DNA from: Ruegeria sp. HKCCD8929
GTDB lineage: Bacteria > Pseudomonadota > Alphaproteobacteria > Rhodobacterales > Rhodobacteraceae
Assembly: GCF_013031405.1 (NCBI RefSeq)
Contig: NZ_WPZY01000014.1
Location: 1-64,000, forward strand
Length of the DNA: 64,000 nucleotides
Direction: 5' to 3'
Part shown: positions 17,209-46,580 of the stretch, piece by piece
How the letters are laid out: each line of letters opens with the position of its first letter
Position numbering within the stretch: the stretch's first letter is position 1
Position numbers and translations under genes: made by a program
Notes under the pieces: model-generated
Databases searched by the model: none
What the model saw: only the letters and a program-made list of their open reading frames with translations
What the model was told of the DNA's origin: nothing

Positions 17209-17259
17209 TGCGGCCTCCTCCCAGATCGCGGCAACTCTGCTGCTCCTCAACAACGTATT

Positions 17260-20486: not shown

Positions 20487-20558
20487 TCCCTCATGTCTGC
20501 CAGGCGGCTTTCTCTGCCGCCCGGCCATCGCTCTGACCATTTCAGAAAGTGACACGCC

Positions 20559-30344: not shown

Positions 30345-30345
30345 C

Positions 30346-31587
30346 CTACGTTCCTCCTGACTTGATCGTACCGTCAGCAACCCAGCCGTCGAAGATTTCC
30401 AGCGCCTTGTCGACAAACGGGCGATCATTGATATGGCAGTCGAGTTCGGTAAACAGGATTGGGTCCGTCATCTGCACACGCATCTCATCGCAGAATTCGG
30501 CAAAGGCGTCGGGATCGTGGGCTTCCTGCCCCTCGCGATCCCACTCCTCGATCCCCTGATTGGTCAGGATCACATGGGCCGGGGTGTCGGACGACTTGAT
30601 GCGTTTCGCCATCTCGCGCGCGGTTTCGCGGCGCTCTTCAGCGTTCAGCCCGGACGATTTTATCAACCGATTATGAGCATGGAACGGGCGATCCCTATAC
30701 TGGGCCGGGATTTCCTGCCAGCCAGCGAAGTCGATCAAATCGAGGCAACCGGGTGCGATGATTTGCGGAATGCCAGCGCGACCCGCATTGAGCATCCGAT
30801 CGTCACCTCCGTTGATGACAGATCCGGCCAGGAGGTTGCCAAGCTCCGGCAGCGCAAAATCCATCACACACCCAAAGCCCCCGTCGCGCGCAATGCTTTC
30901 GTAGGCCATCCCACCCATGCCCGTGGCGTGGAAAATCGCAACTTCAAAACCTCTGCTCTCCAGTTCGGGCTTCAGGGCCTTCATGTATTTCAGACAGGAA
31001 GACCCGAGCGAAGTCATCCCGACCGTCGGTCGTTCATTGCTGGGCGGTTCAACCGCGCGGGCGGCTCCCAGAACGGCGCCAGCGGCCTGGCTCAAGGATG
31101 ACTTGCAGACGGAATTCAGGCCATATAGCCCGCCCGCCCAAAGGATCATCTGGATATCCGCCGACAGTCGTTGCGGCTCGATCAGGGGAGAAAAGGACAC
31201 GGTCGACACGACATATTTCGGAACCCCGAGCGGTAGTGCCTGACAGATATCCAGGGCCGCATCGGTTCCCATGGTTCCGCCAAGGATGACCACGCCGTCG
31301 AACAGGCCGTCATCGAAGAGCTTGCGAGCCAAGGTACTGCCCCCCTTGGCCATGATTTGCATCGCGGTGTTCTCATCGCCACTGTCAATGGCGGCCTGAA
31401 TCGAACTACCGCCAGCCTCAGCCACATCGTGTTTGGAATAATCGGTTGGCCTTTCCGGATCGCCCAGAACCGAAATGTCCATGCTGAGCGCGCTACCACC
31501 TATCGCTCGGATCCGTTCGACCATATAGTCGAGTTCGTCGTTTTTGGTGTCGTAGGTGCCCACGACCAGAATCGTCTTTTCGGACAT
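30346..31587 (-). CDS. Tm-1-like/UPF0261 ATP-binding protein
   Basis: A 413-residue protein beginning EKTILVVGTYDTKNDELDYM, the opening of the UPF0261 (Tm-1 N-terminal) family, with the conserved GGTMGTDAALDICQALPLG and DFALPELGN blocks. Related plant Tm-1 proteins bind ATP; the bacterial role is not established. It ends one base before the TMADH-like start and begins 28 bp after the DMGDH-like stop, so it is embedded in the demethylation operon. Confidence 0.85.
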   Translation of the reverse strand: MSEKTILVVGTYDTKNDELDYMVERIRAIGGSALSMDISVLGDPERPTDYSKHDVAEAGGSSIQAAIDSGDENTAMQIMAKGGSTLARKLFDDGLFDGVVILGGTMGTDAALDICQALPLGVPKYVVSTVSFSPLIEPQRLSADIQMILWAGGLYGLNSVCKSSLSQAAGAVLGAARAVEPPSNERPTVGMTSLGSSCLKYMKALKPELESRGFEVAIFHATGMGGMAYESIARDGGFGCVMDFALPELGNLLAGSVINGGDDRMLNAGRAGIPQIIAPGCLDLIDFAGWQEIPAQYRDRPFHAHNRLIKSSGLNAEERRETAREMAKRIKSSDTPAHVILTNQGIEEWDREGQEAHDPDAFAEFCDEMRVQMTDPILFTELDCHINDRPFVDKALEIFDGWVADGTIKSGGT

Positions 31588-31615: not shown

Positions 31616-34081
31616 TCAGCTGCGCATGATCTCGCCCTTTGGATCGTAGAATGGCCCAAGCCGCGCTTCGATCGGGTACATCTGCCCGGCGATCTGAACC
31701 TCGAAACCGCCTTCGTCGATCCAGGCTTTGGGCGCGCCGCCTTCCTTTTCGAGGGTGGCCAATCCGACCATGGCCCCCAGCCGGAAACCCCAGTCGCCCG
31801 AGGTGACATGGCCCACAATCTCGCCCCCCTTCCAGATCGGCTCGTTGTGGATCAGGTAGGGTCCATCTTCCGCGGTCAGCCCCGGCACTTTGACCGAAAC
31901 CATGCGGTGTTTGTAAGCCGGGCCTTCTTCTTCCTTCTGTTGTGCAAGGCGAGCCTTGCCCAGGAAATTGTCTTCCTTGTCGAGCTTCACAGCAAAGCCG
32001 AGACCTGTCTCATAGGGCGTATCCTCTTCGGCAATATCATGGCCGAAATGGCGGAAACCCTTTTCAAGACGGCAGGAGTTCATTGCAAACATGCCCATAT
32101 GGCGCAGCCCGTGAGGCGCGCCAGCCACAAGCAAGGCCTCATAGACGCCAACCGTGAACTCGGTCGGGAACATCATCTCGAAACCAAGCTCGCCCAAGAA
32201 CGACCGGCGGATCACCCAACCTCGCGCATATGCGACGTCCATCGCGCGCGCCGCGCCGAACGGGAAGGCCTCGTTCGACACATCATCAGTACTCAGCGAT
32301 TGCAGGATCTCCCGCGATTTGGGTCCATGCAACGTCAGCAGGCAATAGGCCGAGGTCGCATCGAAGACTTCGAAATTCCATGATGGATCGGCATGGGCCT
32401 TGATCCAGTATTGGTCCCGTATCTGGCTTGGATGACCGGTCACCACCATGAAGCTTTGCGGTGCGATACGTGTGACGGTCACATCCGCCTCGATCCCGCC
32501 ATTGCTGTTGAGGAACTGCGTGTAGACAGAGTTGCCGACATCGACATCCATCTGCGCTCCGCACACATGATTTAACGCGCGCGCCGCATCCGGCCCTTGC
32601 ACCAGAATCTTCGCATACATCGACTGGTCCAGGATCACAGCCGCATCGCGCGCCGCGAGGCATTCTTGCTTGACCTGCTCTGACCAGGGCTTCCAACCGA
32701 GCGATGGGCTATCCGGCCAAGTCGGGTTCCCGGCATCATAATACATCGGAACTTCCCAACCGATACGTTCGGCCATGACTGCGCCAGCTTCCTTAAACTC
32801 GCGATGCAGCGGAACCCTGCGCACGCCACGGGCTGAATTGACTTGTCGACCCGCCCAGGCAATGCCGTAGTGGAAGCCGACACTTTCGGCCGCACGTTCC
32901 TGATTGTAGCGGGTGTTGGCTTGGAAGGGATGCGCCCGGGCGGCCAAGAGAGGCCCCATGGACCGCGACGGCATGCCCTCGATCATCCATTCGGCCATTG
33001 TAAGGCCAGCACCGCCCGAGTTCAGGATGCCGTTTGAATTCATGCCTGTTGCAAGGAACACGCCCTGCAACTCCGGCGCCGGCCCCATATAGGGACGGCC
33101 ATCCGGTGTGAAACTCTCCGGACCGCAAAAAAAGGTCTGGATCCCCATATTCTCCAGCGACGGCATCCGCGCGAACATGCGCATCAGGTCCTCCTCGACA
33201 TGCTCCATGTCGAAAGGAAGCTCGTCGAACTCGAAGTCTTCCGGGATACCATCCTGTGCCCAAGCCTTGCCCTGCGCTTCGAACCCACCAATCAGGATTT
33301 TGCCCGCGTCCTCTTTCCAATAGTTCCGCTCTTCAATGATGTTTAGGATCGGCTGGTCAGATGTCAGGCCGTCGACTGGTTCCGTCACGATGTAGAAATG
33401 CTCGGCCGCATGGAGGGGAACCGTGATGCCATGTGCCTTACCGAAGAGGTGAGACCACATCCCCCCGGCCAGCAACACCTGTTTCGTCGCGATGGTGCCC
33501 CTGTCGGTCGCAACACCCGCGACCTTGCCGTTACGAATTTCGAGGTTCTCGACTTTGGTTTCCTCAAAAACCTGAGCGCCCTTTTGACGGGCGCCCTTGG
33601 ACAGAGCAACGGTCACATCCAGTGGATTTACCTGGCCGTTGGACGGCACAAACAAGCCCGATTTCACATCGTCGATGACGAGGGCGGGCCAGTACTCTTT
33701 CACCTCCTGAGGCGAGAGCACTTGGCTTGGGATGCCCATCCGTGCCGCATGGTCATGCTGACGTAAAAGTTGCTCGTGCCGAACATCGCTGAGCGAAATG
33801 TTGATCGTGCCGTTCTGCTTGTAACCCGTGCCTTGCCCAGTTTCCTCTTCGAGATCACGAAACAGGCGCGCAGTGTATTTGCCCAGCTCCGTCTGCGAAT
33901 TGCTGTCGCGCAATTGGCCCACGATACCCGCCGCGTGCCAAGTCGTACCACTTGCGATCTTGCGCCGCTCGATCAACACAGCAGGCACACCGCGATGGGC
34001 AAGGTGGTAAAGCGTCGACATGCCGATGATGCCGCCGCCGATGATCACGACCGGAGCCGATTGCGGAAGGGGTTTGCTCAT
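31616..34081 (-). CDS. Dimethylglycine/sarcosine dehydrogenase-like flavoprotein with GcvT domain
   Basis: An 821-residue fusion. The N-terminal DAO-type FAD domain has a GGGIIG nucleotide motif (residues 15-20) and TTWHAAG with H49, the position that covalently holds FAD in dimethylglycine dehydrogenase. The C-terminal half (from about residue 430) is a GcvT-like aminomethyltransferase fold, expected to pass the released one-carbon unit to tetrahydrofolate. It would demethylate a secondary or tertiary N-methyl amine. It is co-directional with a class III aminotransferase 13 bp upstream. Confidence 0.85.
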   Translation of the reverse strand: MSKPLPQSAPVVIIGGGIIGMSTLYHLAHRGVPAVLIERRKIASGTTWHAAGIVGQLRDSNSQTELGKYTARLFRDLEEETGQGTGYKQNGTINISLSDVRHEQLLRQHDHAARMGIPSQVLSPQEVKEYWPALVIDDVKSGLFVPSNGQVNPLDVTVALSKGARQKGAQVFEETKVENLEIRNGKVAGVATDRGTIATKQVLLAGGMWSHLFGKAHGITVPLHAAEHFYIVTEPVDGLTSDQPILNIIEERNYWKEDAGKILIGGFEAQGKAWAQDGIPEDFEFDELPFDMEHVEEDLMRMFARMPSLENMGIQTFFCGPESFTPDGRPYMGPAPELQGVFLATGMNSNGILNSGGAGLTMAEWMIEGMPSRSMGPLLAARAHPFQANTRYNQERAAESVGFHYGIAWAGRQVNSARGVRRVPLHREFKEAGAVMAERIGWEVPMYYDAGNPTWPDSPSLGWKPWSEQVKQECLAARDAAVILDQSMYAKILVQGPDAARALNHVCGAQMDVDVGNSVYTQFLNSNGGIEADVTVTRIAPQSFMVVTGHPSQIRDQYWIKAHADPSWNFEVFDATSAYCLLTLHGPKSREILQSLSTDDVSNEAFPFGAARAMDVAYARGWVIRRSFLGELGFEMMFPTEFTVGVYEALLVAGAPHGLRHMGMFAMNSCRLEKGFRHFGHDIAEEDTPYETGLGFAVKLDKEDNFLGKARLAQQKEEEGPAYKHRMVSVKVPGLTAEDGPYLIHNEPIWKGGEIVGHVTSGDWGFRLGAMVGLATLEKEGGAPKAWIDEGGFEVQIAGQMYPIEARLGPFYDPKGEIMRS

Positions 34082-34094: not shown

Positions 34095-35447
34095 TCAGGC
34101 TGCCGCCAAGCCGATATCGAGCGCGAAGAGGACTTGCCTCACGTCATCTGCGGTCAATACCAATGGTGGGGACAAAATGAGATTGGGACCCGATACGCGG
34201 ACCATCACGCCATTGGCGTGGGTTGTGTCGAAGACCTGCTTGATCCGCGCCGCGTCCAAAGGTTTTTTCTTTTCGCGGTCAGACACCAGCTCAAGTGCAT
34301 TCATCAGGCCTTCACCACCGCGCACGTCGCCGACTATCTCATGCTTGGCTTTCAGGGCCTCGAGACCCGCCATCATTTCTTTCCCCCGCGCAGCGGCGTT
34401 GTCCTTGACATTCAGGCGCTGGATTTCCTTCAGGCAGGCGATGGCTGCCGCGGCCCCGACCGGATGTCCGGAATAGGTGTAGCCGCTGGCGATATTGGCT
34501 TTGCCGGTGTCATCCTTTTCAAAGGCTTCGGTCAGGTGGTCGGCGATCATGACCGCGCCGAATGGGAAATAACCGTTAGTAATCGCCTTGGCGGTCACTG
34601 CGAAATCCGGCTTTACCCCCCAATGGCGAGAACCGGACCAAGACCCGGTCCGCCCATAGGCGGTGATCACCTCATCCGCGATCAAAAGGATACCGTTGCG
34701 GTCGCAGATATCCCGCACGCCGGGCATGAAACTTTCATGAGGGGGGATCACGCCCCCCGCCCCAAGAACCGGCTCCATGATGAAAGCGGCAATGGTCTCG
34801 GCCCCCTGAAATGCGATCTCATCTTCCAGGGCCGAAAGGCAAAGTTGAGCGAGCCGCTCTGGGTCAGTCTCGTTGAACGGGTTGCGATAGGTGTAGGGGG
34901 CCGGAATGTGAAAGCAGCCAGGCAGCAACGGTTCGTACTGCTTGCGGAAATTCGAGTTGCCATTGACGGAGGCACCGCCGGTGTGGGTGCCGTGGTAGCC
35001 CTTTTTGAGGCTCAAATACTTGGTCCGGCCCGCCTCGCCGCGGACTTTGTGATACTGCCGCGCAAGGCGCAGAGCGATCTCGATGCCGTCCGAGCCGCCT
35101 GAGGTAAAGAACGCACGGCTCAACCCATCGGGTTCGAAAAACTCCTGCAACATGTAGCTGAGTTCGATCACCGCATCGTTGGAGGTCCCTCGAAAGGTCG
35201 AGTAATAGGGCAGTTGCTCAAGCTGCGCGGCAATCGCCTTCTTCACCGGGTCGCAGGAGTACCCAAGGTTCACGTTCCAGAGCCCGCCCACCGCGTCGAT
35301 GGTCTCGTTGCCGTCTACATCGACGATGCGCACGCCCTTGCCGCCGGTGATGATCTTGGGAGGATTGGCCAGACTGTCGGCAGGATGTGCCATCGGGTGC
35401 CACATGTAACGGGCGTTGTTTTCTTTCAGAAAATTGTCGTCCTTCAT
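34095..35447 (-). CDS. Class III (omega) aminotransferase
   Basis: A 450-residue PLP aminotransferase of the aspartate aminotransferase fold type I, class III. The PLP Lys lies in VTAKAITNGYFPFG and the cofactor Asp in LLIADEVITAYGRTG. It resembles omega-amino acid:pyruvate aminotransferases (beta-alanine, taurine or putrescine type). It would convert a primary amine left after demethylation into an aldehyde or keto acid. Its start overlaps the stop of the short HAD gene upstream by 4 bp. Confidence 0.88.
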   Translation of the reverse strand: MKDDNFLKENNARYMWHPMAHPADSLANPPKIITGGKGVRIVDVDGNETIDAVGGLWNVNLGYSCDPVKKAIAAQLEQLPYYSTFRGTSNDAVIELSYMLQEFFEPDGLSRAFFTSGGSDGIEIALRLARQYHKVRGEAGRTKYLSLKKGYHGTHTGGASVNGNSNFRKQYEPLLPGCFHIPAPYTYRNPFNETDPERLAQLCLSALEDEIAFQGAETIAAFIMEPVLGAGGVIPPHESFMPGVRDICDRNGILLIADEVITAYGRTGSWSGSRHWGVKPDFAVTAKAITNGYFPFGAVMIADHLTEAFEKDDTGKANIASGYTYSGHPVGAAAAIACLKEIQRLNVKDNAAARGKEMMAGLEALKAKHEIVGDVRGGEGLMNALELVSDREKKKPLDAARIKQVFDTTHANGVMVRVSGPNLILSPPLVLTADDVRQVLFALDIGLAAA

Positions 35448-36072: not shown

Positions 36073-37008
36073 ATGAAAAAGACACTGATCGCTGTTGCCG
36101 CAGCGCTCGCGGCGCTGACGCCGGGACTTGCCGTGGCTGAGTATCCTGAGAAGCCGGTTGAGTTTGTGGTGCCGTGGCCTCCGGGTGACGCAGAGGACGT
36201 ACTGACGCGGATGATCGCGGAAGACTTCCAAACCAAATACGGCGTGCCGGCAGCTGTGGTGAACAAGCCAGGTGGCGGCGGTGGCCCTTTCCCGGGCGCT
36301 GTCGAAGTCGCAAAGGCACCGGCTGACGGGTACACCGTCGGGTCGTTCATTCTCGCCGTGCCGGTCATCGGCCCCAATATCGGAATTCCAGAATTGAACC
36401 CGAACCCGTTTGAGCCACTGGGTGCGTTTCTGACCTATCCGTTTGTGATCGTGTCGAGCAAGAATTCTCCCTACTCCAGCATCGACGAGCTTGCCGCCCA
36501 TGCGCAGGACAATGACGTTGTGCTCGGCCATTTTGGGGCGCCGCTGATCCCGACAAAGGTGACCTTTGCGCTGGCACAGCAAAAAGGCTTTTCCTTCGCT
36601 GCGGACGCTGCGTTTGACATTCTTGACTGCAACTCCCTGGCTTCTGGCGATGTAGATGTCATGAACACCACACTGCAGTTGGTTTTGCCCTGTCTCGATG
36701 ACATCAACGTTCTGGCGTCCATCGGGGGTGAACGCATCGGTCTGACACCGGAGACGCCGACCGTCGGCGAGCTGGATCCGAGCCTGACCCTGTCTTTGTG
36801 GAACGGCCTCTTCGTGCACAAGGACACGCCAGCCGATGTGCGCGAGAAAATCATCGCGGTTGCTCAGGAGACTATGGCGTCCGAACGGGCGCAGGACTTC
36901 ATGGCGAAGACGGGTGCACTTGTGTACTGGCAAAATGCCGAGGATACGGCCGCACAGATTGAAGCGGATGCCGAGGCACTGGCCAATATCAACGCGATGC
37001 TGGAGTGA
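36073..37008 (+). CDS. tctC: TctC-family periplasmic binding protein of a TTT importer
   Basis: A 311-residue secreted receptor: the signal peptide ends near residue 22 (GLAVAEYP), then the Bug/TctC fold (EFVVPWPPGDAEDVLTRMIA, VVNKPGGGG). The ligand loop reads PPGDAED, whereas carboxylate binders generally have PGG-type loops, so the ligand may carry a positive charge. It begins an operon with tctB and tctA, then an aldehyde dehydrogenase, regulator, phospho-lyase and kinase. The symbol follows the family, not a proven substrate. Confidence 0.88.
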   Translation: MKKTLIAVAAALAALTPGLAVAEYPEKPVEFVVPWPPGDAEDVLTRMIAEDFQTKYGVPAAVVNKPGGGGGPFPGAVEVAKAPADGYTVGSFILAVPVIGPNIGIPELNPNPFEPLGAFLTYPFVIVSSKNSPYSSIDELAAHAQDNDVVLGHFGAPLIPTKVTFALAQQKGFSFAADAAFDILDCNSLASGDVDVMNTTLQLVLPCLDDINVLASIGGERIGLTPETPTVGELDPSLTLSLWNGLFVHKDTPADVREKIIAVAQETMASERAQDFMAKTGALVYWQNAEDTAAQIEADAEALANINAMLE

Positions 37009-37086
37009 TCTGGACATCCTCAGGCACTACGGCGGGCTGACCGGCCCGCCGCATCACGATGTCGGCCAGGGCCTAGGGAGGGGCAG

Positions 37087-37626
37087 ATGATCAAAGCACA
37101 AACACTACAGGACCTGTTCAAACGCTATCGCCGGCCCGGCGATTTGTTTTACAGCTGCGTTTGCCTCGCCTTCAGCCTGTTTCTGGCCGTCAACCTGTCG
37201 TCCCAGACAACCTGGGCCTCGGGTACCAAGCTTCTGGCACAACCGGCATTCTGGCCCTATGCGGCAGTGATCACGATGGTGGGCTGTTCCACCTTGCACC
37301 TGATTTCCAGTTTCGTGTCACCAAAGCTCGATGGACGCTGGCAAGAGATCGGGTTCTGGTTCAAATCGGTCGAATTTGCCGGGTGGTTCATGATCTATGT
37401 GATCATCGTCCCGCAGCTTGGGTACTTTCCAACCACGATCATCTTCTCGGTCGCATTGTCGTATCGCCTCGGCTATCGCAGCACTAAGTTCCTGGGCTCC
37501 GCCGCACTTTTCGGCGCGGTTGTTGTCATCGTTTTCAAGTCATTCCTGCAAGTGAAGGTGCCGGGGGGCGCTGTCTACGAATATCTCCCGAACGGGCTTC
37601 GCTCATTCTTCCTGACGTATCTCTAG
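37087..37626 (+). CDS. tctB: TctB-family small permease subunit
   Basis: A 179-residue protein with about four membrane segments, typical of TctB. It starts after an AGGGGC-like ribosome-binding site (37078-37083) and ends 10 bp before tctA. It supports the large TctA subunit in sodium- or proton-driven import of the TctC ligand. Little sequence conservation is expected in this subunit, so its identity rests on size, topology and position. Confidence 0.85.
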   Translation: MIKAQTLQDLFKRYRRPGDLFYSCVCLAFSLFLAVNLSSQTTWASGTKLLAQPAFWPYAAVITMVGCSTLHLISSFVSPKLDGRWQEIGFWFKSVEFAGWFMIYVIIVPQLGYFPTTIIFSVALSYRLGYRSTKFLGSAALFGAVVVIVFKSFLQVKVPGGAVYEYLPNGLRSFFLTYL

Positions 37627-37636
37627 GAGCGCAAGC

Positions 37637-39157
37637 ATGGAAACCTTCTTCTCAGGTGTCGAGCTTCTCATGCGTTGGGACGTCGTTCTTGCGCTTTTTG
37701 TTGGCTCTATCGGCGGCGTGATCATCGGCGCAATTCCAGGTGTTGGGGCAGCGGTGGCTATTGCGATCCTGCTTCCGGCGACGTTCTCACTCGACCCGAT
37801 TGTCGGCCTCACAATGCTGCTCGGAATTTATGGATCGTCGATGTATGGCGGCGCCTTGCCCGCGATCCTGATCAACACGCCTGGCACAGCGGTCAATGCG
37901 CTGACCACCTATGACGGCTATCCCATGACCAAACGCGGTCAGGCCCGTCGTGCGCTTGCGCTGGCCTACTCTGCGTCATTCTGGGGCGGGATGTTCGGCA
38001 TCCTCTGTCTGATCTTCCTTTCGCCAGTTCTCGCTCTTGTTGCCCCGCATTTCGGCAGCCGGGAGATATTCCTCGCCGCTCTTCTCGGCATCATTCTTGT
38101 CGTGCTAGCCCACCGTGGTCAGGTTTTCGCAGCCGGTGGTCTGGCTGGCTTCGGGATCTTGCTCCATACCGTTGGACTGGACGTCAAATACAATCAACGC
38201 ATGACGTTCGAGCAAACCTGGCTCACCGGCGGATTCGATCTGATCGTCGTCGTGCTTGGGCTATTCGCACTGTCACAGGCGTTCCTGCTTTTGACCGACA
38301 AGGACAGCGCACCCCACCCTCAGCCCGTCGAGGGCTCTCTTGCCAATGCCATGAAGGAAACCTGGCTCTACAAGCGCGTCGCGACTGTCGCTGGTGGGTT
38401 TGGTGTTCTGATGGGTATGATCCCAGGGGTCGGCGAATTCACCGCGCAGTTCATGTCCTATACCTATGCCCGGAAGACTTCCAAAACGCCCGATGATTTC
38501 GGTGACGGCGCTCCGGAGGGCCTGATCGCGTCGGAGGCCGCCAACAACGCGGTGCCAGCGGCAGCCATGATCCCGCTTCTGGCCCTTGGCATCCCCGGCG
38601 AAGCGCTCACTGCCATGATGCTGTCGGTCTTTTATGTGCATAACGTGATCCCCGGACCGCAGCTCTTCCAGAGTCAGCTCGATTTCGTCTACGCGCTCTA
38701 CGTGGCGATGATCCTGCTCAACGTCATCGTGATCATCTTCCTGATCTTCTCGACCAACCTGCTGACGAAGATCATCCAGGTGCCCACGCGTTTCCTTGGC
38801 ATGATCATCCTGACGCTGAGCTTTGTCGGGGTCTACAGTCTGCGAAACTCCGTTGTCGATTGCGCCATCGCGGCTGGCTTCGGCATTTTGGGGCTGGTCC
38901 TGAAACGGTTGAACTTGCCCATCGTGCCGATCGTCCTCGGCATGGTGCTGGGCGGCATCATGGAGGTCAAACTACGCTCGGCCATGATCCGAGTGAAAGA
39001 TCCGCTTGATTTCGTCGACCGCCCGATCGCCGCCATGCTCGCAGCAACGATCGTTCTGGTAACCGTCCTGCATATCCGCACGTTGCGCAAAGAGCATAAT
39101 GCGCGGTTGGCAGAATCCGAGATCGATCACGAAATGCACGACACGCAGCAAAGGTAA
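37637..39157 (+). CDS. tctA: TctA-family large permease subunit
   Basis: A 506-residue polytopic protein with the TctA hallmark GAIPGVGAAVAIAILLP near the N-terminus and its repeat MIPGVGEFTAQFMSY in the second half. The PALLI-like block GGALPAILINTPGTAV is also characteristic, as is AANNAVPAAAMIPLLALGIP. It is the transport channel of the TTT system. The next gene, an aldehyde dehydrogenase, starts 6 bp downstream. Confidence 0.93.
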   Translation: METFFSGVELLMRWDVVLALFVGSIGGVIIGAIPGVGAAVAIAILLPATFSLDPIVGLTMLLGIYGSSMYGGALPAILINTPGTAVNALTTYDGYPMTKRGQARRALALAYSASFWGGMFGILCLIFLSPVLALVAPHFGSREIFLAALLGIILVVLAHRGQVFAAGGLAGFGILLHTVGLDVKYNQRMTFEQTWLTGGFDLIVVVLGLFALSQAFLLLTDKDSAPHPQPVEGSLANAMKETWLYKRVATVAGGFGVLMGMIPGVGEFTAQFMSYTYARKTSKTPDDFGDGAPEGLIASEAANNAVPAAAMIPLLALGIPGEALTAMMLSVFYVHNVIPGPQLFQSQLDFVYALYVAMILLNVIVIIFLIFSTNLLTKIIQVPTRFLGMIILTLSFVGVYSLRNSVVDCAIAAGFGILGLVLKRLNLPIVPIVLGMVLGGIMEVKLRSAMIRVKDPLDFVDRPIAAMLAATIVLVTVLHIRTLRKEHNARLAESEIDHEMHDTQQR

Positions 39158-39163
39158 TTCGCC

Positions 39164-40651
39164 GTGACGGACCAGTCTCAAATTGATGCGCTACGCGACA
39201 AGCCAATCCCGCCGCAGAACCTTCTGATCGACGGGGAATTGTGCCAAAGCGCCTCTGGGGCGACAGATGACGTCATATCGCCGCTGAACGGAGCGTTGCT
39301 GACCACGACCCCGGCAGGCACCAGGGAAGATACCGAACGGGCGATACAAGCGGCGCGCCGGGCGTTTGATGATAAGCGCTGGCGCGGGATGCCGCCTGCG
39401 GCCCGGAAAAAGATCATGCTCAGATGGGCGGACTTGCTGGAAGAAAATATGCTGGACTTGGCCGTCCTGGGTGTTCGCAACAACGGCACCGAGATTGGTA
39501 TGGCCCTGAAAGCCGAACCTGGCTCAGCCATTGCTACGATCCGCTTTTATGCAGAGGCCATCGACAAAGTTTATGGCGAGATTGCCCCAACAGCCGATGA
39601 CGTTATGGGGCTGATCCACAAGGAAGCTGTTGGCGTGGTGGCCGCAATCATCCCCTGGAACTTCCCGTTGATGATCGGTGCCTGGAAACTGGGCCCTGCC
39701 CTCGCCGCAGGCAACTCCGTTGTCTTGAAACCGTCGGAAACAGCGTCGCTTTCTCTGATCCGTATGGCGGAACTGGCGCTTGAGGCCGGTCTGCCCCCCG
39801 GTGTGCTCAACGTCGTGACGGGCGAAGGGAAAATCGTCGGCGAGACGCTGTCGCATTCCATGGATGTCGACGTGATCGTGTTCACTGGTTCCGGCGCAAC
39901 CGGTCGTAGGCTTTTGCAGGCCTCAGCCGCGTCGAACATGAAGCGCTGCTATCTCGAACTGGGTGGCAAGTCGGCGAATGTCGTCTTTGCAGACACAAAG
40001 AACCTGTCTGAGGCCGCAGCCGTCAGCGCCGCAGGTATCTTCCGCAACTCGGGGCAGGTCTGTGTGGCTGGGTCGCGCTTGCTGGTCGAACGCTCCATCC
40101 ATGATGACTTCGTCGCGGAGTTGGCAAAGGCCGCGGCGGCCATACGAGTAGGCGATCCGCTTGATCTAACGACACAGGCTGGCGCAGTGAACAACCCCAC
40201 TCAACTGGCGCAAAATCTTGCTTTCGTTGAAACGGCACAGGCCGAGGGCGGCACGCTCTATCATGGCGGCAATCAGATCCTCCAAGACACCGGCGGGTAC
40301 TTCATGGAGCCCACGATCATCACCGATGTGGCAGAGGACCATACCGTTGCGCAGAAAGAAGTGTTCGGCCCGGTGCTGGCAGTCACGCCATTTGAAGATG
40401 AAGGCGACGCCATACGGCTCGCCAACAGCACCGACTATGGGCTTGCAGGCGGTGTCTGGACGTCAGACCTCTCTCGCGCTCATCGCATGGTGCGCGAAAT
40501 GCGCACGGGCGTGGTACATGTGAACACCTATGGTGGTCCCGATGTCACCGTTCCCATGGGTGGCGTTAAGCAGTCAGGCAACGGGCACGACAAGTCCCTG
40601 CACGCATTCGAAAAGTACTTCGACCTCAAGACGGCGTGGTTCAAACTCTGA
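39164..40651 (+). CDS. NAD(P)-dependent aldehyde dehydrogenase (PuuC-like)
   Basis: A 495-residue aldehyde dehydrogenase. The catalytic Cys is C300 in SGQVCVAGSR and the general base is E265 in LELGGKSAN; the NAD site reads IPWNFPLM and FTGSGATG. It starts at a GTG 6 bp after tctA. It resembles dehydrogenases acting on amino-aldehydes. In this operon it is well placed to oxidise the aldehyde made by the phospho-lyase. The exact aldehyde is unknown. Confidence 0.88.
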   Translation: MTDQSQIDALRDKPIPPQNLLIDGELCQSASGATDDVISPLNGALLTTTPAGTREDTERAIQAARRAFDDKRWRGMPPAARKKIMLRWADLLEENMLDLAVLGVRNNGTEIGMALKAEPGSAIATIRFYAEAIDKVYGEIAPTADDVMGLIHKEAVGVVAAIIPWNFPLMIGAWKLGPALAAGNSVVLKPSETASLSLIRMAELALEAGLPPGVLNVVTGEGKIVGETLSHSMDVDVIVFTGSGATGRRLLQASAASNMKRCYLELGGKSANVVFADTKNLSEAAAVSAAGIFRNSGQVCVAGSRLLVERSIHDDFVAELAKAAAAIRVGDPLDLTTQAGAVNNPTQLAQNLAFVETAQAEGGTLYHGGNQILQDTGGYFMEPTIITDVAEDHTVAQKEVFGPVLAVTPFEDEGDAIRLANSTDYGLAGGVWTSDLSRAHRMVREMRTGVVHVNTYGGPDVTVPMGGVKQSGNGHDKSLHAFEKYFDLKTAWFKL

Positions 40652-40667
40652 CGTTCAGGAGGGGTCT

Positions 40668-41696
40668 TTGAATAAGATCAACAGTTCCATCGCACCGGAT
40701 TTCCCTGTTGGCAAGGCAACACGCCCAATATCGTGCGCGTTCATCCTCGTCCCGGGCTTCAGTTTCTTAGACCTTGCCGCTGCAGTTGCACCGCTTGCCG
40801 CGACCAATCGGATATGCGGACGGACGGTCTATGACTACAACGTGTACTCCGTTCACGGAGGACCGGTGGAAAGCGCCAATGGCAGCCTGAGTTCGGTGGA
40901 TGGTGCGTTGGCGGACATTCGCAGCGACGCGCGGTGTTTCATTCTCTCATTCGACGACCCATGGGCTCACATCGACACGGCACTTTCGAATTGGCTGCGC
41001 CACCGGGAACGCCATGAAAACGCGCTGTTGGGCTGCATCGGGACCTCAGCGGTTGCTGTTATCGAAGCGGGAGTCCTGCGGCGGCGCCCTTTTACGGTGC
41101 ATTGGAGCATTCAGGCAGCTTTCGAGGAACGGTACCCGGACTTGGTTCGGGCTTCGTCGATTTTCACAGAAGTCTCAGGGCTTGTGACTTGTGCGGGCGG
41201 CCAATCCACATCTGATATGATGATGTCCTTGGTCGCTCGGGATACGCATGACCGTGTGTCCTTGAAGGTCGCAGATTTCCTGCTCGGGCAGGCTCCTCGC
41301 CCTCCTGACACGCCACAAAGGCTCAGCGCATCGGTTCGGTACAACACACGCAACCCAATGTTCCTGTCGGTGGTTCAGGCCATTGATGAGAACCGGATCG
41401 AAGGGCTGACCGTGGACGAACTTGTCGAACGATTTGGGATATCGCGCCGCCAGATCGAACGGACGTTCAACAGCATCACGGGGATGCCACCAACGCAATT
41501 CATCAAGCGCAAGCGGCTCGAGAAGGCACGCGATCTTCTGAACCAAACAAACATGTCCGTGATGGATGTCGCGATTGCAACAGGGTTTGGATCGGTCGCG
41601 AATTTCTCCAAATCCTTCACTCGGCAATATGGGGTGCGCCCGTCTCAATGCATCAAGAGTCAGTTTTCAGCGGACGCAGTCACGAACAGGACGCAA
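40668..41696 (+). CDS. GlxA-type AraC-family regulator (DJ-1/PfpI-like sensor plus AraC HTH)
   Basis: A 343-residue regulator. The N-terminal half is a GATase1-like DJ-1/PfpI domain (FILVPGFSFLDLAAAVAPL). The C-terminal part is an AraC double HTH (LVERFGISRRQIERTF and VAIATGFGSVANFSKSF). Relatives include CdhR, GbdR and ArgR, which sense carnitine, glycine betaine or arginine. A TTG start at 40668 follows a strong AGGAGGGG site; the open frame extends upstream into the aldehyde dehydrogenase only out of phase. It is the likely operon regulator. Confidence 0.85.
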
Positions 41697-41704
41697 TAAA
41701 ATAC

Positions 41705-43018
41705 ATGACCCAGTTTCACGCAACACGCTCAGACGCAGAGTTGATCTCGGCCAGGGAACGCCTCCTCGGCCCAAAGATGAGCACGTTTTATGAAGAACCC
41801 GTGCATTTGGTGAAGGGTGACGGAGTTTGGGTCTGGGATGCGCAGGGCCGCAAATATCTCGATTGTTACAACAACGTGCCGCATGTGGGTCATTGCCACC
41901 CCAAAGTGGTTGAGGCCATTTGCCGACAGGCGGCGAAACTGAACACACACACACGATACCTTCACGAAGGCATTATTCGATATGTCGAAAAACTGACTGC
42001 GACTTTCGATGAACCTCTGAAGACAGCGATCATGACCTGCACTGGGTCAGAGGCCAACGACATCGCACTCAGAATGGCTGAAGCGATGACCGGCAAACGG
42101 GGTGTGATCGCGACTGACCACACGTACCATGGCAATACCACCGTCGTGGCGCAGCTCTCGATGACCAATCGCCCAGGCACCGGGGATGGCAGCCATGTAC
42201 GCCATGTGCCCGCGCCGGACAGCTACCGTCCCTTGGGAGGAGAGGCAGGCGACGCGCATGCCCGCGCTTTCGCACAGGCGATTCAGGCGCAAATCGACGA
42301 TCTTGAGACCAGCGGCCATGGCTTTTCGGCACTGATCATTTGCCCCTACTTCGCCAACGAAGGTTTCCCTGATCTCGCACGCGGCTTTCTTGATCCAGCC
42401 ATCGAGGTTGTGCGCCGGGCAGGCGGGATCATCATCGCGGACGAAGTGCAGCCGGGCTTTGGCCGGATCGGCAGCCATATGTGGGGCCATCAACGCATCG
42501 GTATGACGCCGGATGTGGTCACCTTGGGCAAGCCCATGGGCAATGGGCACCCCGTTGCGGGTGTGGTTACCTCGATGGACGTGATGGCGAAGTTTCGCAA
42601 CTCCTTCCGGTACTTCAACACGTTTGGCGGCAACCCGGTCTCCTGCGCTGCAGCCGAAGCGGTATTGGATGTGCTCGAAGAAGAAGGATTGGTCGCACAG
42701 GCACATGATGTGGGGGCTTATGCCTGCAAGCGGCTGCACAAACTGGCCGAACGTCATATCTGCATCGGCGACGTGCGCGGATCCGGCCTGTTTTTTGGGG
42801 CCGAGATGGTTCTGGACCGCGAGACAAAAGAGCCAGCCACCGCCTTTACCAAACGGCTGGTCAACGAGATGCGCCAAGAAGGCGTTTTGATCAACTTCCT
42901 TGGCATCAACTACAACGTTCTCAAAATCCGCCCAAGCATGCAGTTTACGCGCGAGAATGCCAATCTTCTGATCCACACGCTTGATCGAGTTTTGAGCCGG
43001 GTGGAGTTACACCCGTGA
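41705..43018 (+). CDS. AGXT2L-type PLP phospho-lyase (class III aminotransferase fold)
   Basis: A 437-residue PLP enzyme with the Lys at K276 ([13 protein letters not shown]) and the cofactor Asp at D246. Several blocks match the human ethanolamine-phosphate and phosphohydroxylysine phospho-lyases much better than ordinary aminotransferases: [36 protein letters not shown] and [12 protein letters not shown]. Such enzymes eliminate phosphate and ammonia from an O-phosphorylated amino alcohol to give an aldehyde. The kinase next door (4-bp overlap) and the upstream aldehyde dehydrogenase fit exactly. Ordinary transamination remains possible. Confidence 0.8.
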
Positions 43019-44019
43019 TCGAAGCGACGGCACAAAATGCCCTTTCATCCTGGGGTCTCGACGGCGCGCATCTCTCACTTGTTGCGCAACGGGAGAATAT
43101 TGTCTTTCGAGTGAAACACGCCGGGGCGCAATATGCGCTGCGCCTGCATCGCCCGGGATATCAATCGGTTCAGATGATGAAATCTGAGTTGGGTTGGATG
43201 CAGCATCTGGGGGCGGAGGGTTTGAACGTTCCCGCTCCACTGCCCTCAGACAACGGAGCATTGCTGAGAGCGGTCGGCGGATATCAGGCGGACCTTCTGA
43301 CTTGGCTCAGCGGAACCCCAATGGGAGAAACGGGCAAGCCGCTGGATCTTCCTGACCGGATTGGGACCTTCCGGCGGGTAGGCCGCCTGATGGCCCGGGT
43401 TCACCAGGTTTCAGACGATTGGGACCTGCCCGAGGGTTTTGAGCGGAAGTCTTGGGACATCGACGGTCTCTTGGGCGACGCTCCACTCTGGGACCGCTTC
43501 TGGGACAACCCCGGCTTGAGTGACACAGAGCGCGCCCGTGTCATGGCGGCGCGGGACGGTCTGCGGGCCGAACTCTCAGATGACGGTTTGGATTTGGGCC
43601 TCATCCACGCGGATATGTTGCGCGAAAACATTATGATCGACGGGGATAACTTGGGTCTGATTGACTTTGACGATAGCGGTTTTGGGTTCAGGCTGTTCGA
43701 TGTTGCAACGGCTTTGTTCAAAAACCGCACAGAACCGGATTTCGGTGACTTGCAAACAGCGTTTCTGAATGGCTACCGCGACGTGCGACCGCTCGACACG
43801 ACCTTGTTGCCGCAATTCATGCTCGTGCGTGCGTTGTCGTATCTGGGCTGGATCATCACTCGCATGGATGAGCCAGGCGCAAAGGCACGTCAGAAGCGCT
43901 TTTTGTCCTCATCACTGCCGATGGTGGATGCCTACCTTGAAGGGATCGGACCAGTTTCGCGAGGTAAGGCTAACCATCGAGACGACGGTTCCGGCTCAAT
44001 CCCACCGCTTGGCTATTGA
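43015..44019 (+). CDS. APH-fold small-molecule kinase (hydroxylysine-kinase-like)
   Basis: A 334-residue phosphotransferase. The catalytic loop reads LIHADMLRENIM and the metal loop LIDFDDSGFGFRLFD, as in aminoglycoside-phosphotransferase-fold kinases including homoserine and hydroxylysine kinases. The GTG start at 43015 overlaps the phospho-lyase stop. It would phosphorylate the hydroxyl group of the substrate that the phospho-lyase then cleaves. Antibiotic resistance is unlikely given the context. Confidence 0.82.
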   Translation: MIEATAQNALSSWGLDGAHLSLVAQRENIVFRVKHAGAQYALRLHRPGYQSVQMMKSELGWMQHLGAEGLNVPAPLPSDNGALLRAVGGYQADLLTWLSGTPMGETGKPLDLPDRIGTFRRVGRLMARVHQVSDDWDLPEGFERKSWDIDGLLGDAPLWDRFWDNPGLSDTERARVMAARDGLRAELSDDGLDLGLIHADMLRENIMIDGDNLGLIDFDDSGFGFRLFDVATALFKNRTEPDFGDLQTAFLNGYRDVRPLDTTLLPQFMLVRALSYLGWIITRMDEPGAKARQKRFLSSSLPMVDAYLEGIGPVSRGKANHRDDGSGSIPPLGY

Positions 44020-44159: not shown

Positions 44160-46580
44160 CTAACCCAACAGACGAGCGTTTTCCGGGTCGTATTGGACGG
44201 TCGGGTGCCTTTTGGCTCCAAAAGGCTCGCCCAGAATACTGACATCGCAGTCTTCACCCATTGCAAGGACCCCGCGTTTCACAAAGCCCAATGCAAGCGT
44301 TTTACCTGTCCGGGCGCCGTAAGTTCCGGACGTGACATAGCCTATGACCGCCCGGTTTTTCAGTATCGGCTCGGACGCCAGCGGCAAGGGAGAGGGGTCC
44401 GTGATTTCCAGACCGACCCATTCCCATTCGGATGCTTCTGCGGTCTGTTCAAGCAGGGCTTCACGGCCCAGAAATGCGCCTTTTTGCGGCCTGGCGAAGG
44501 ATTGCAGCCCAGCGTCGAAAAGCGTGTATTCGGTTCCGATGTCCGATCCCCAACCGTGGTACCCCTTTTCGATACGCATCGCGTTCAATGCGTAAGAGCC
44601 GAATTGCCCGATCCCGAATTTCGCCCCCTGATCCATGATCGCCCGATAGAGCTCAGGCAGGTCGGCGCTGGATGCGTGCAATTCCCATCCCAGCTCTCCC
44701 ACATAGGAAACCCGCATCGCGATCACATCGATGCCGGCGACCCTGATTTCGACGACGGACATCCAAGGGGCCGCGGCGGCCGACAGATCAGCCTCGGACA
44801 GCGGGGCCAGTACGTCGCGCGATCTTGGACCCATCACCATCAGGCATCCGTCTTTGGGGTGGCCCACGGAAAGGGTGACACCCTCGCCGGGCAACGCGGC
44901 GTTCAGCCAGTCGAAATCCCGCAAGTTCGCCAGCGTTGGCCCGCAGAGCAGGAACCGGTCATGCGAAAGCCGGGCAATTGTCGCCTCGGACCAGATGCGG
45001 CCCTTGGGGGTCAGCATGTAGCCTAGCTTGATGCGGTCGGGGTGTGGCATCGCCCCGCAAAACAGGTGATCCAGATAGGCCTCGGCCCCGTGCCCTTCGA
45101 CGGTGAATTTGGTGAACCCCCCGTGATCCATCACGCCGACGGATTGAGCGACCGTCAGGCATTCGTTGCGCACAGCGGCGTGCCAGGGCTCTTCGTGAAA
45201 GCTCAATTCTCCGGTGTCGGGCGTTTCATCGGTTTCGAACCAGAAGGCCCGCTCCCATCCGCCGATTTGGCCCATGACCGCACCAGTTTGTTTGAGTTGG
45301 GCATACAGGGGAGTGCGTTGCAGCGGTCGTCCGGACGCCATGTTCCGGTGCGGATAGGGAATGGCATATTGCAGATCGTAGTGCTCGGACGCACGGGCAT
45401 GGGCATAGTCGGGTGTCGCCCAATTTCCAAAGCGGCGCGGGTCCCAGGCCGCAAGGTCCCATTCGGTCTCACCTTCGGTGATCCATTCGGCCATCGCCTT
45501 GCCGATGGCAGCGGAATGGGTGATGCCGATCTGGACACCTGTGGCGTGGTAGAAATTGGGCGCCCCTGCCGCCGGGCCGACAAGCGGTAAGGCATCGGGC
45601 GCATAGGCAATCGGGCCGTTGACGAACCGCTGCGCGCCCGCCTGCGCCAACAGTGGAACATGCATGATCGTATCCTCAAGGACTTCGAGAATATCCTCGA
45701 CACTGTCCGAGAAAAGCTGATGCGCGAAATCGTCGGGCGGGCCGCTTTCTGACCAAGCGGGCCGTCCGGCATGGGCGTAGGAGCCCAGCAAAAAGGCGTT
45801 GCGCTCACGCCGCAAGTAAAAACGGATATCCGGGTCGCGCACCAGAGGGAACAGGTCGGGGTGTTCTTCGAGCGCCACCAGAGGTTCCGTTACCAGATAT
45901 TGATGTTCCAGCGTCACCACGGGTGTTTGCAGCCCGGCCATCTCTGCGACTTTCGCACCATAGAACCCGGCTGCATTGATCACGATTTCCGCCGTGATGC
46001 ATCCGTCAGTGGTTGAAACCTCCCACTCGCCGCCGGGCTTTCGCGTTATGCCGGTCACCGGAGTAAATCGCCGGATCTGGGCGCCCAGATCGCGCGCGCC
46101 CTTGGCAAGCGCCTGTGTCAACTGGCTGGGGTCGATATCGCCCTCATAAGGGTCCATGATTCCGCCCAGAACGGTATCGTCGGGCGACCAGAACGGGTGC
46201 ATGGCATCCATCTCACCGGGGCTCAGCCTGTGCAAGTCGAACCCGGCGCTCTGGGCCACGCCTTCGATATGGCCAAACAGGTCCATTCGCTCCGGCGTAT
46301 GCGCGGGCCAGAAGGCGCCGGTGTGACGATAGGTGATGGGACTGTCCACCTTGTCGGCGAGATCCTTGTAAAGCCGCCAGCCGTAATTTCCGGCCCTCAT
46401 CCCCAGCCACGAGGTCGCATAGATCGGGATGTTGCCCGCCGCGTGCCAGGTCGATCCGCTTGTCAGCTCGTCCCTTTCCAGCAGAACGGTGTCCGTCACA
46501 CCTGCCAAGGCGAGATGATACAGGATCGAGCATCCCACGGCACCACCGCCAATCACAACGACACGCTTATGGGTATTCAT
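44160..46580 (-). CDS. Dimethylglycine dehydrogenase-like flavoprotein with GcvT domain (second copy)
   Basis: An 806-residue relative of the protein at 31616-34081, with the same layout: GGGAVG FAD motif, GSTWHAAG with the covalent-FAD His at H46, and a C-terminal GcvT fold (from about residue 420). Sequence differs widely from the first copy, so they are old paralogues. Its start overlaps the stop of the MttB-family gene (4 bp), implying stoichiometric expression with a methyltransferase. It would oxidise a methylated amine and hand the one-carbon unit to a folate. Confidence 0.85.
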   Translation of the reverse strand: MNTHKRVVVIGGGAVGCSILYHLALAGVTDTVLLERDELTSGSTWHAAGNIPIYATSWLGMRAGNYGWRLYKDLADKVDSPITYRHTGAFWPAHTPERMDLFGHIEGVAQSAGFDLHRLSPGEMDAMHPFWSPDDTVLGGIMDPYEGDIDPSQLTQALAKGARDLGAQIRRFTPVTGITRKPGGEWEVSTTDGCITAEIVINAAGFYGAKVAEMAGLQTPVVTLEHQYLVTEPLVALEEHPDLFPLVRDPDIRFYLRRERNAFLLGSYAHAGRPAWSESGPPDDFAHQLFSDSVEDILEVLEDTIMHVPLLAQAGAQRFVNGPIAYAPDALPLVGPAAGAPNFYHATGVQIGITHSAAIGKAMAEWITEGETEWDLAAWDPRRFGNWATPDYAHARASEHYDLQYAIPYPHRNMASGRPLQRTPLYAQLKQTGAVMGQIGGWERAFWFETDETPDTGELSFHEEPWHAAVRNECLTVAQSVGVMDHGGFTKFTVEGHGAEAYLDHLFCGAMPHPDRIKLGYMLTPKGRIWSEATIARLSHDRFLLCGPTLANLRDFDWLNAALPGEGVTLSVGHPKDGCLMVMGPRSRDVLAPLSEADLSAAAAPWMSVVEIRVAGIDVIAMRVSYVGELGWELHASSADLPELYRAIMDQGAKFGIGQFGSYALNAMRIEKGYHGWGSDIGTEYTLFDAGLQSFARPQKGAFLGREALLEQTAEASEWEWVGLEITDPSPLPLASEPILKNRAVIGYVTSGTYGARTGKTLALGFVKRGVLAMGEDCDVSILGEPFGAKRHPTVQYDPENARLLG

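What the first reader, a model, noticed from the sequence alone, without database searches (positions are those of the whole stretch)
36073..44019. Kinase / phospho-lyase / aldehyde dehydrogenase pathway with its own TTT importer
An APH-fold kinase overlaps an AGXT2L-type phospho-lyase gene, with an aldehyde dehydrogenase, a DJ-1-AraC sensor and TctCBA importer in the same operon. The mammalian pair hydroxylysine kinase plus phosphohydroxylysine phospho-lyase (or ethanolamine phosphate phospho-lyase) does the same chemistry. The predicted route is import of a hydroxylated amine, O-phosphorylation, elimination of phosphate and ammonia, then oxidation of the aldehyde. The TctC loop PPGDAED suggests a cationic group on the ligand. 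To my knowledge no bacterial TTT operon of this kind has been characterised.
Basis: partly seen in the sequence, partly recalled or inferred. Interest (0 to 1): 0.78.

Follow-up and report, generated by a model that had tools for sequence, protein, structure and literature searches.

The report
Kinase–phospholyase route for aryl-ethanolamines
A bacterial gene cluster appears to import aromatic amines related to noradrenaline or octopamine, put a phosphate on their hydroxyl group, remove phosphate and ammonia, and feed the product into a ring-cleavage pathway; the enzymes are of known types, but the substrate is predicted from gene neighbourhoods and untested.

Summary
Window 36073-44019 (+) encodes TctC, TctB, TctA, an aldehyde dehydrogenase, a GbdR-like AraC regulator, a class-III PLP enzyme and an APH-fold kinase; the last two overlap by 4 bp. 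The PLP enzyme matches solved phospholyases far better than other class-III enzymes (392 and 362 bits against 198).

In relatives the cassette (TTT or APC importer, ALDH, second aminotransferase, UPF0261 protein, lyase, kinase) often sits in or beside homoprotocatechuate (hpa) genes, in Rhodobacterales and on Rhizobium plasmids. Across 248 genomes (247 genera) this TctC and HpaE co-occur: 64 both, 9 TctC only, 24 HpaE only, 151 neither (p = 3.5e-29).

I predict β-hydroxylated aryl-ethylamines (noradrenaline/octopamine type): kinase on the β-hydroxyl, lyase to arylacetaldehyde, ALDH to arylacetate, then hpa ring cleavage. Against: the genome's hpa cluster is on another contig, and a stand-alone lyase-kinase clade shares the active-site residues. 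Enzyme kinds known; substrate class perhaps new; no activity shown.

The parts
36073..37008 (+). TctC, periplasmic solute-binding protein of the TTT importer; loop PPGDAED
   Evidence: Pfam TctC 64 bits; best solved relative BugD, E 1e-21; PPGD in 38 of 38 TctC examined
37087..37626 (+). TctB, small membrane subunit
   Evidence: Pfam TctB 44.8 bits, cut-off 29.1
37637..39157 (+). TctA, large membrane subunit
   Evidence: Pfam TctA 425.6 bits
39164..40651 (+). Aldehyde dehydrogenase, predicted to oxidise the arylacetaldehyde
   Evidence: Pfam Aldedh 532 bits; best NCBIfam PuuC 541 bits but below its 850 cut-off, so no named substrate
40668..41699 (+). AraC-family regulator of the GbdR type (ORF open from 40530; likely start TTG 40668)
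   Evidence: HTH_18 82 bits; GbdR model 177 bits, below cut-off; AGGAGG before TTG. At 45% identity or more found only in the window among the annotated loci
41705..43018 (+). PLP-dependent ammonio-phospholyase, class-III fold (ORF open from 41648; likely start ATG 41705)
   Evidence: 5g4i 392 bits, 6tor 362, next 198; Lys295, Asp265, Arg103, Arg428 (ORF numbering) in 71 of 71 aligned homologues
43015..44019 (+). APH-fold kinase, predicted amino-alcohol kinase, 4 bp overlap with the lyase
   Evidence: Pfam APH 103 bits; best solved relative 6ef6, E 1e-38; His198, Asp200, Asn205, Asp217 in 70 of 71 homologues, the other having a gap
34095..35447 (-). Second class-III aminotransferase (PRK07481 type), predicted to act on amines without the hydroxyl
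   Evidence: PRK07481 719 bits, cut-off 575; best solved relative an omega-transaminase, 5lh9; in the stretch in 33 of 48 loci on the window's side
30346..31587 (-). Tm-1-like UPF0261 protein, function unknown, recurrent member of the cassette
   Evidence: Pfam UPF0261 N and C over cut-off; in 38 of 48 loci
31616..34081 (-). FAD/folate enzyme of the dimethylglycine dehydrogenase type, predicted N-demethylase
   Evidence: Pfam DAO 240, GCV_T 229 bits; homologues of 69-75% beside the cassette in 5 other distinct loci
28275..30428 (-). FMN amine dehydrogenase of the trimethylamine/histamine dehydrogenase family
   Evidence: 3k30 histamine dehydrogenase, E 5e-190; homologues at 53 and 59% in L029 and L117
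44160..46580 (-). Second FAD/folate enzyme of the dimethylglycine dehydrogenase type
   Evidence: 5l46, E 3e-158; next to MttB in 3 hpa-cassette loci at 62-63%
46577..48073 (-). MttB-superfamily protein, predicted amine methyltransferase
   Evidence: Pfam MTTB 321 bits; beside the cassette in L066, L068, L073 at 61-62%
26887..28208 (-). Two subunits of a 3-oxoacid/acetate-type CoA transferase on the same strand; role here unclear
   Evidence: TIGR02428 and TIGR02429 over cut-off
25920..26663 (-). IclR-family regulator
   Evidence: Pfam IclR_C 67 bits; IclR-type genes lie in many related cassettes

Best explanation
The window holds an upper pathway for β-hydroxylated aryl-ethylamines (noradrenaline/octopamine type). 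TctCBA imports the amine or a related zwitterion. Dimethylglycine-dehydrogenase-like, trimethylamine-dehydrogenase-like and MttB-like enzymes strip N-methyl groups where present. The kinase phosphorylates the β-hydroxyl. The PLP phospholyase removes phosphate and ammonia, giving an arylacetaldehyde. The aldehyde dehydrogenase makes the arylacetate, which in this genome would enter the homoprotocatechuate cluster on another contig (G000 C29). The neighbouring aminotransferase would give the same aldehyde from amines without the hydroxyl (dopamine/tyramine type). Shown here: gene content, family membership, recurrent neighbourhood, co-occurrence. Inferred: every reaction and the substrate.
For: Lyase close to solved phospholyases, catalytic residues kept. 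Kinase next to the lyase in 53 of 53 loci fetched by the lyase and compared. Cassette in or beside hpa genes in several arrangements: HpaE and HpaR over NCBIfam cut-offs in L049, HpaD in L036 and L058; Rhizobium plasmids with hpaR, hpaE, hpaD, hpaH, hpaI and a 4-hydroxyphenylacetate 3-hydroxylase. The decarboxylase in the genome's own hpa cluster is closest to DOPA and tyrosine decarboxylases. In 248 genomes TctC and HpaE: 64/9/24/151, p = 3.5e-29; lyase (E<=1e-150) and HpaE: 41/31/47/129, p = 7.8e-6; 11 of 74 lyase hits within 20 kb of HpaE, 43 of the 74 being in genomes with HpaE and 0.4-0.7 expected by chance. In the genus 14 of 37 genomes have a lyase of 61% identity or more, all 14 with HpaE (28 of 37 have it; p = 0.007). 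HpaB over cut-off in 1 of 37 genus genomes, which points to catecholic feed there.
Against: No hpa match in the window; the genome's hpa cluster is on contig C29, at unknown distance. Two or more hpa genes were seen in 17 of 48 loci on the window's side; 8 of 48 have neither ALDH, aminotransferase nor UPF0261. 31 of 72 genomes with the lyase at E<=1e-150 lack HpaE; lyases under 590 bits show no association, 14 of 40 genomes. A clade of 23 stand-alone lyase-kinase pairs has the same active-site residues. The forks that hold the window's 43 rows and the 23 rows have only 82 and 83% SH-aLRT. In 9 loci the TTT cassette lies in the hpa cluster without lyase and kinase. TTT proteins are best known for carboxylates (recalled). 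The GbdR-like regulator and the CoA transferase hint at other substrates. One kinase locus of 18 (L029) shows no lyase.
Confidence: 0.55

Rival explanations
1. Simple aliphatic amino alcohols: kinase and lyase act on ethanolamine or 1-amino-2-propanol, giving acetaldehyde or propionaldehyde, oxidised by the ALDH. The tie to the hpa cluster would come from the other cassette genes.
For: Best solved relatives are a bacterial phospholyase and ethanolamine-phosphate phospho-lyase; kinase best matches 6ef6, which I recall as an aminopropanol kinase; active-site residues equal those of the stand-alone clade; 9 hpa-cassette loci lack lyase and kinase.
Against: Three or more of four cassette parts in 34 of 48 loci on the window's side and 0 of 23 stand-alone ones (loci partly picked for nearness to TctC); lyase and kinase lie inside or beside hpa genes on Rhizobium plasmids and in L036 and L112; lyase co-occurs with HpaE.
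Confidence: 0.22
2. A β-hydroxylated, N-methylated amino acid of the carnitine/4-amino-3-hydroxybutyrate type: demethylation, phosphorylation, elimination to succinic semialdehyde, oxidation.
For: Several predicted N-demethylases and a GbdR-like regulator in the window; TTT importers usually take carboxylates (recalled); CoA transferase nearby; a gene annotated gabD (succinate-semialdehyde dehydrogenase) lies in both Rhizobium clusters.
Against: gabD is also expected of the hpa pathway, whose aldolase step yields succinic semialdehyde (recalled). The cassette sits with hpa genes in relatives, and most loci lack the demethylases: DMGDH1 in 6 of 48, MttB in 1 of 48.
Confidence: 0.1
3. 5-Hydroxylysine pathway as in mammals: kinase makes 5-phosphohydroxylysine, lyase makes 2-aminoadipate semialdehyde, ALDH makes 2-aminoadipate.
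For: Same enzyme kinds and order as the mammalian pair (recalled; title seen in a reference list); a zwitterion would suit a TTT protein and the acidic loop.
Against: No lysine or aminoadipate gene among those annotated or scanned in the window; hpa genes and an aromatic-type decarboxylase instead. Not every neighbour was identified.
Confidence: 0.08
4. The PLP enzyme is only a transaminase and the kinase acts on something unrelated.
For: The class-III fold is mostly transaminases (passages of PMC8154272; Pfam Aminotran_3).
Against: Phospholyases score 392 and 362 bits, the next solved class-III enzyme 198; kinase beside it in 53 of 53 loci fetched by the lyase and compared; another aminotransferase is already in the cassette.
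Confidence: 0.05

Closest known systems
Bacterial phospholyase 5g4i/5g4j and ethanolamine-phosphate phospho-lyase (ETNPPL, 6tor)
   Same: Class-III fold, PLP lysine, best sequence match; GKPMGNGHP shared with both, NNVPHVGH with 5g4i (NNVAHVGH in 6tor)
   Different: Known for phosphoethanolamine (recalled); here the neighbourhood in relatives is aromatic. Activity untested
(S)-1-amino-2-propanol kinase of the aminoacetone utilisation microcompartment (title seen in a reference list; that 6ef6 is this enzyme is recalled) and the Aut microcompartment locus (passages of PMC6620236)
   Same: APH-fold kinase, 6ef6 is the best solved match, E 1e-38; the Aut locus also pairs an aminotransferase-like and a phosphotransferase gene
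   Different: No shell-protein gene among the window and cassette genes that I identified; aromatic neighbourhood
Mammalian hydroxylysine kinase and phosphohydroxylysine phospho-lyase (recalled; reference seen)
   Same: Kinase then ammonio-phospholyase then aldehyde oxidation
   Different: No hydroxylysine context found
Homoprotocatechuate (3,4-dihydroxyphenylacetate) meta-cleavage cluster, hpa
   Same: Relatives carry the cassette in or beside it; own genome has it on C29
   Different: Classical feed is 4-hydroxyphenylacetate through HpaBC (recalled); HpaB is over cut-off in only 1 of 37 genus genomes
[quoted passage not shown]
   Same: Class-III PLP lyase acting on a β-hydroxy amine
   Different: Eliminates water, no kinase; the window lyase scores 211 bits to its model, cut-off 525

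Membership tests
Ammonio-phospholyase (ETNPPL/PHYKPL type) | Class-III PLP fold with the Schiff-base lysine | tested here: met
   Aminotran_3 240 bits; Lys295 in 71 of 71
Ammonio-phospholyase (ETNPPL/PHYKPL type) | Closer to characterised phospholyases than to other class-III enzymes | tested here: met
   392 and 362 bits against 198
Ammonio-phospholyase (ETNPPL/PHYKPL type) | Releases phosphate and ammonia from an O-phospho amino alcohol | not testable with these tools
   Needs the purified enzyme
APH-fold amino-alcohol kinase | APH fold with the HxDxxxxN and second Asp motifs | tested here: met
   Pfam APH; residues in 70 of 71, one gap
APH-fold amino-alcohol kinase | Phosphorylates the hydroxyl of a β-amino alcohol | not testable with these tools
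   Needs an assay
Tripartite tricarboxylate transporter | TctA, TctB and TctC side by side | tested here: met
   gaps of 78 and 10 bp
Homoprotocatechuate (hpa) catabolic cluster | Cassette linked to hpa genes in relatives | tested here: met
Homoprotocatechuate (hpa) catabolic cluster | hpa genes in the window itself | tested here: not met
   No hpa query matched the window; own cluster on C29
Hydroxylysine degradation pathway | Lysine or aminoadipate genes beside the pair | tested here: not met
   None among genes annotated or scanned in the window; not every gene was identified
GbdR/DJ-1-AraC regulator | DJ-1-like N-domain plus AraC HTH | tested here: inconclusive
   HTH firm; N-domain only through the GbdR model below its cut-off

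The most novel reading that the evidence does not exclude
Rhodobacterales and rhizobia carry a dedicated route for catecholamine-type compounds (noradrenaline, adrenaline, octopamine, synephrine and N-methyl relatives). It primes the β-hydroxyl by phosphorylation, removes phosphate and ammonia with a PLP lyase, imports through a TTT system whose binding protein has an acidic PPGD loop (an APC permease in rhizobia), and in Ruegeria-like genomes feeds homoprotocatechuate ring cleavage without 4-hydroxyphenylacetate hydroxylase.
Probability: 0.45. Interest if true: 0.75.

Novelty: new variant of a known kind. Interest (0 to 1): 0.62.

Why it matters
If true, it explains how bacteria can use β-hydroxylated aromatic amines, which are neurotransmitters and plant alkaloids, by phosphorylating the hydroxyl and eliminating phosphate. 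It would give a testable substrate to a widespread cassette whose genes carry names such as 'aspartate aminotransferase', 'homoserine kinase' and 'Tm-1-like protein', and a functional setting for a UPF0261 family member.

Tried and rejected
Hydroxylysine and ethanolamine as first choice: set back for lack of matching neighbours, not excluded. Positions that would separate the window's side of the lyase tree from the stand-alone clade: only residues 247 and 406 reach 85% in both groups (and the window itself has the stand-alone letter at 247); PLP and catalytic positions are the same. Kinase: positions 55, 202 and 228 differ at 80%; not interpretable without a structure. Promoter and terminator scans found fewer sites than shuffles give (1 against 3.0; 3 against 8.3), so they say nothing about the operon. 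The 590-bit split of lyases was chosen after seeing the scores; the unsplit test gives p = 7.8e-6. Co-occurrence tests ignore the tree, though the 248 genomes stand for 247 genera. I folded no protein: sequence settled the fold, and a fold would not give the substrate. Searches for bacterial breakdown of octopamine, synephrine or noradrenaline gave nothing on phosphorylation (listings, 13, 1 and 20 of 629 papers shown; passages of PMC10816480). Passages of PMC5028733 gave no enzyme function for UPF0261.

Sampling. Loci compared are not a random draw: 17 of 48 came from the kinase search, others were picked partly because they lie near TctC or partly because they score low. The unpicked figures are: of 74 lyase hits, TctC within 20 kb for 6 of 9 (650 bits or more), 11 of 20 (600-650), 3 of 16 (570-600), 0 of 29 (under 570).

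Rows dropped before counts: L055, L056, L058, L124, L128 as duplicates and L062 as part of the window; L061, L064, L065 as distant homologues; L046 and L047 as weak kinase hits without neighbours; the more distant lyases of G028 (45-51%), a genus member with HpaE, were not counted among the 14 of 37. My ORF picker took some shadow frames, so proteins without a Pfam family prove nothing.


Full report
What is there. Gaps between the first four are 78, 10 and 6 bp; lyase and kinase overlap by 4 bp. Two ORF starts in the mechanical list are probably too early: the regulator most likely begins at TTG 40668 behind an AGGAGG and the lyase at ATG 41705.

The lyase and kinase. Against solved structures the lyase scores 392 bits with a bacterial phospholyase (5g4i) and 362 bits with ethanolamine-phosphate phospho-lyase (6tor); the next, dialkylglycine decarboxylase, gets 198. 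Lys295, Asp265, Arg103, Asn75, Asn76 and Arg428 (ORF numbering) are the same in all 71 homologues aligned; around them the motifs vary a little (residue 78 is Pro in 64 of 71, residue 298 is Ala or Gly). This makes phospho-elimination the likely reaction. The kinase has the APH motif residues in 70 of 71 homologues, one having a gap; its best solved match is 6ef6, E 1e-38, which I recall as an amino-alcohol kinase.

The neighbourhood. A pattern scan of the GTDB genome collection with the kinase confirmed 20 loci, 18 of them strong; 17 of these 18 show the lyase, L029 does not. Of 61 relatives (window genome included) 17 have a lyase at E<=1e-100. Annotating loci by tblastn with window and hpa proteins showed a recurring cassette: importer, ALDH, a second aminotransferase (window 34095-35447), a UPF0261 protein (window 30346-31587), lyase, kinase. 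In many relatives it abuts or is interleaved with homoprotocatechuate genes. In L049, HpaE scores 754.5 bits (cut-off 638) and HpaR 133.5 (cut-off 121); L036 has HpaD of the Fe type at 447.5 (cut-off 316) and L058 HpaD at 408 (cut-off 321); the HpaF-like gene is Pfam CHMI, 139 bits. The HpaG-like gene is a Pfam FAA_hydrolase below the NCBIfam HpaG cut-offs. Named examples are plasmids of Rhizobium leguminosarum ATCC 14479 and R. brockwellii CC275e: 4-hydroxyphenylacetate 3-hydroxylase, flavin reductase, ALDH, APC permease, IclR, UPF0261, HAD, aminotransferase, lyase, kinase, hpaR, isomerase, hpaE, hpaD, gabD, a fumarylacetoacetate hydrolase, hpaH, hpaI; the second also has a pyridoxal-dependent decarboxylase. 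Ruegeria pomeroyi DSS-3 has aminotransferase, ALDH, lyase, kinase and UPF0261, but no hpa gene or TTT importer annotated in the 29 kb shown. The Shinella record has a pyridoxal-dependent decarboxylase and an APC permease nearby, the Roseateles record (flagged unverified) an hpaD.

Statistics. In 248 genomes of the family (247 genera), HpaE over its cut-off is found in 88, the window's TctC at E<=1e-90 in 73, the lyase at E<=1e-150 in 72. TctC and HpaE: 64 both, 9, 24, 151 neither, p = 3.5e-29. Lyase and HpaE: 41, 31, 47, 129, p = 7.8e-6. With a cut at 590 bits, chosen after seeing the data, 27 of 32 genomes with a high-scoring lyase have HpaE against 61 of 216 others (p = 1.5e-9), while low-scoring ones show nothing (14 of 40 against 74 of 208). 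Eleven of 74 lyase hits lie within 20 kb of HpaE and 20 of 74 within 20 kb of TctC; 0.4-0.7 would be expected for the first under random placement. In the genus, 14 of 37 genomes have a lyase of 61% identity or more and all 14 have HpaE, which 28 of 37 have (p = 0.007).

The lyase tree. In a tree of 75 lyases the window falls in a 43-row group made mostly of cassette loci; beside it stand a 5-row group of rhizobial type, also with the cassette, and a 23-row clade of stand-alone lyase-kinase pairs (support 82, 96 and 83, the fork between the three open). On the window's side (43 + 5 rows) at least three of four cassette parts are present in 34 of 48 loci, and two or more hpa genes in 17 of 48; in the stand-alone clade both are 0 of 23. 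Five of the 23 stand-alone stretches are shorter than 14 kb, and the loci were partly picked for nearness to TctC or for low score, so these fractions are not unbiased. The stand-alone pairs share the catalytic residues, so the lyase sequence itself does not reveal the substrate.

Why aryl-ethanolamines. A kinase plus ammonio-phospholyase turns R-CH(OH)-CH2-NH2 into R-CH2-CHO; with an ALDH this becomes R-CH2-COOH. Homoprotocatechuate genes degrade 3,4-dihydroxyphenylacetate (established knowledge), so R would be a phenol or catechol and the substrate an octopamine- or noradrenaline-like amine. The second aminotransferase, nearest in the PDB to an omega-transaminase, would make the same aldehyde from tyramine or dopamine. 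This fits the 9 loci that have TctCBA, ALDH, aminotransferase and UPF0261 in the hpa cluster but no lyase or kinase in the stretch (L066-L073, L082); in 7 of these 9 genomes no lyase was found at E<=1e-100 (G001, G009, G018, G019, G030, G032, G036), the other two have one elsewhere. A decarboxylase in the hpa clusters, in this genome too, is closest in the PDB to DOPA and tyrosine decarboxylases, with tryptophan and histidine decarboxylases and arylacetaldehyde synthases further down; NCBIfam names it nothing over cut-off. HpaB, needed to use 4-hydroxyphenylacetate by the classical route, is over cut-off in 1 of 37 genus genomes (two more have weak sub-threshold hits) although 28 of 37 have HpaE; another hydroxylase is not excluded. 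In this genus a catecholic feed is therefore likelier. Rhizobium, with HpaB, could take monophenols.

N-methyl groups. The window adds two dimethylglycine-dehydrogenase-like enzymes, a histamine/trimethylamine-dehydrogenase-like enzyme and an MttB-like protein. Homologues occur beside the cassette elsewhere: DMGDH1 in L028, L030, L032, L033, L117; DMGDH2 with MttB in L066, L068, L073; the FMN enzyme in L029 and L117. They suggest N-methylated substrates (synephrine, adrenaline or quaternary forms), an inference only; most cassette loci lack them.

What speaks against it. No hpa query matched the window; the genome's own hpa cluster is on another contig at unknown distance. The window's regulator is GbdR-like, unlike the IclR genes of relatives, and a CoA transferase lies in the left gene row. 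A gabD in the Rhizobium clusters fits the hpa pathway but would also fit a route to succinic semialdehyde. TTT systems are known mainly for carboxylates (recalled); DOPA-like or N-methyl amino acids would suit them, and the PPGD loop is in 38 of 38 TctC, also where lyase and kinase are missing. So TctC may carry a general aromatic amine or amino acid, with lyase and kinase as an accessory branch.

Verdict. The enzyme kinds are known; their combination with a TTT importer and homoprotocatechuate genes looks like a new variant, with the caution that my ten paper searches covered open-licence papers and none asked for TTT systems.

Noticed in passing
window 35447-35737 (-): A 97-residue open stretch directly upstream of the second aminotransferase looks by eye like a shortened HAD-type hydrolase. 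It has no Pfam hit at 0.001, and the HAD query gave no listed match in the window. Several relatives carry a HAD gene next to this aminotransferase.
   Followed up: partly
window 19401-25591 (+): NMT1-like binding protein, a TRAP DctM subunit and two sulfatase-family ORFs in a row; sulfate esters of aromatic amines are one possible feed, untested.
   Followed up: no
window 10358-17253 (-): ABC importer genes (ATPase, two BPD_transp_2 permeases, periplasmic binding protein).
   Followed up: no
window 53338-54978 (+): ORF joining a DUF427 domain to an adenylate/guanylate cyclase catalytic domain.
   Followed up: no
L042, L053, L054, L082, L119, L121, L122: A glutamine-synthetase-like gene (named by eye) with a P450 beside hpa/TTT cassettes in 7 loci; possibly O-demethylation and γ-glutamylation of aromatic amines.
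   Followed up: no
window 30346-31587 and 47 further annotated loci: The UPF0261 (Tm-1-like) protein is one of the most constant members of the cassette (48 matches at 45% identity or more) although its function is unknown.
   Followed up: no
L091-L110, L113, L114, L116: Stand-alone lyase-kinase pairs without any cassette or hpa gene in the stretch fetched; substrate unknown.
   Followed up: partly
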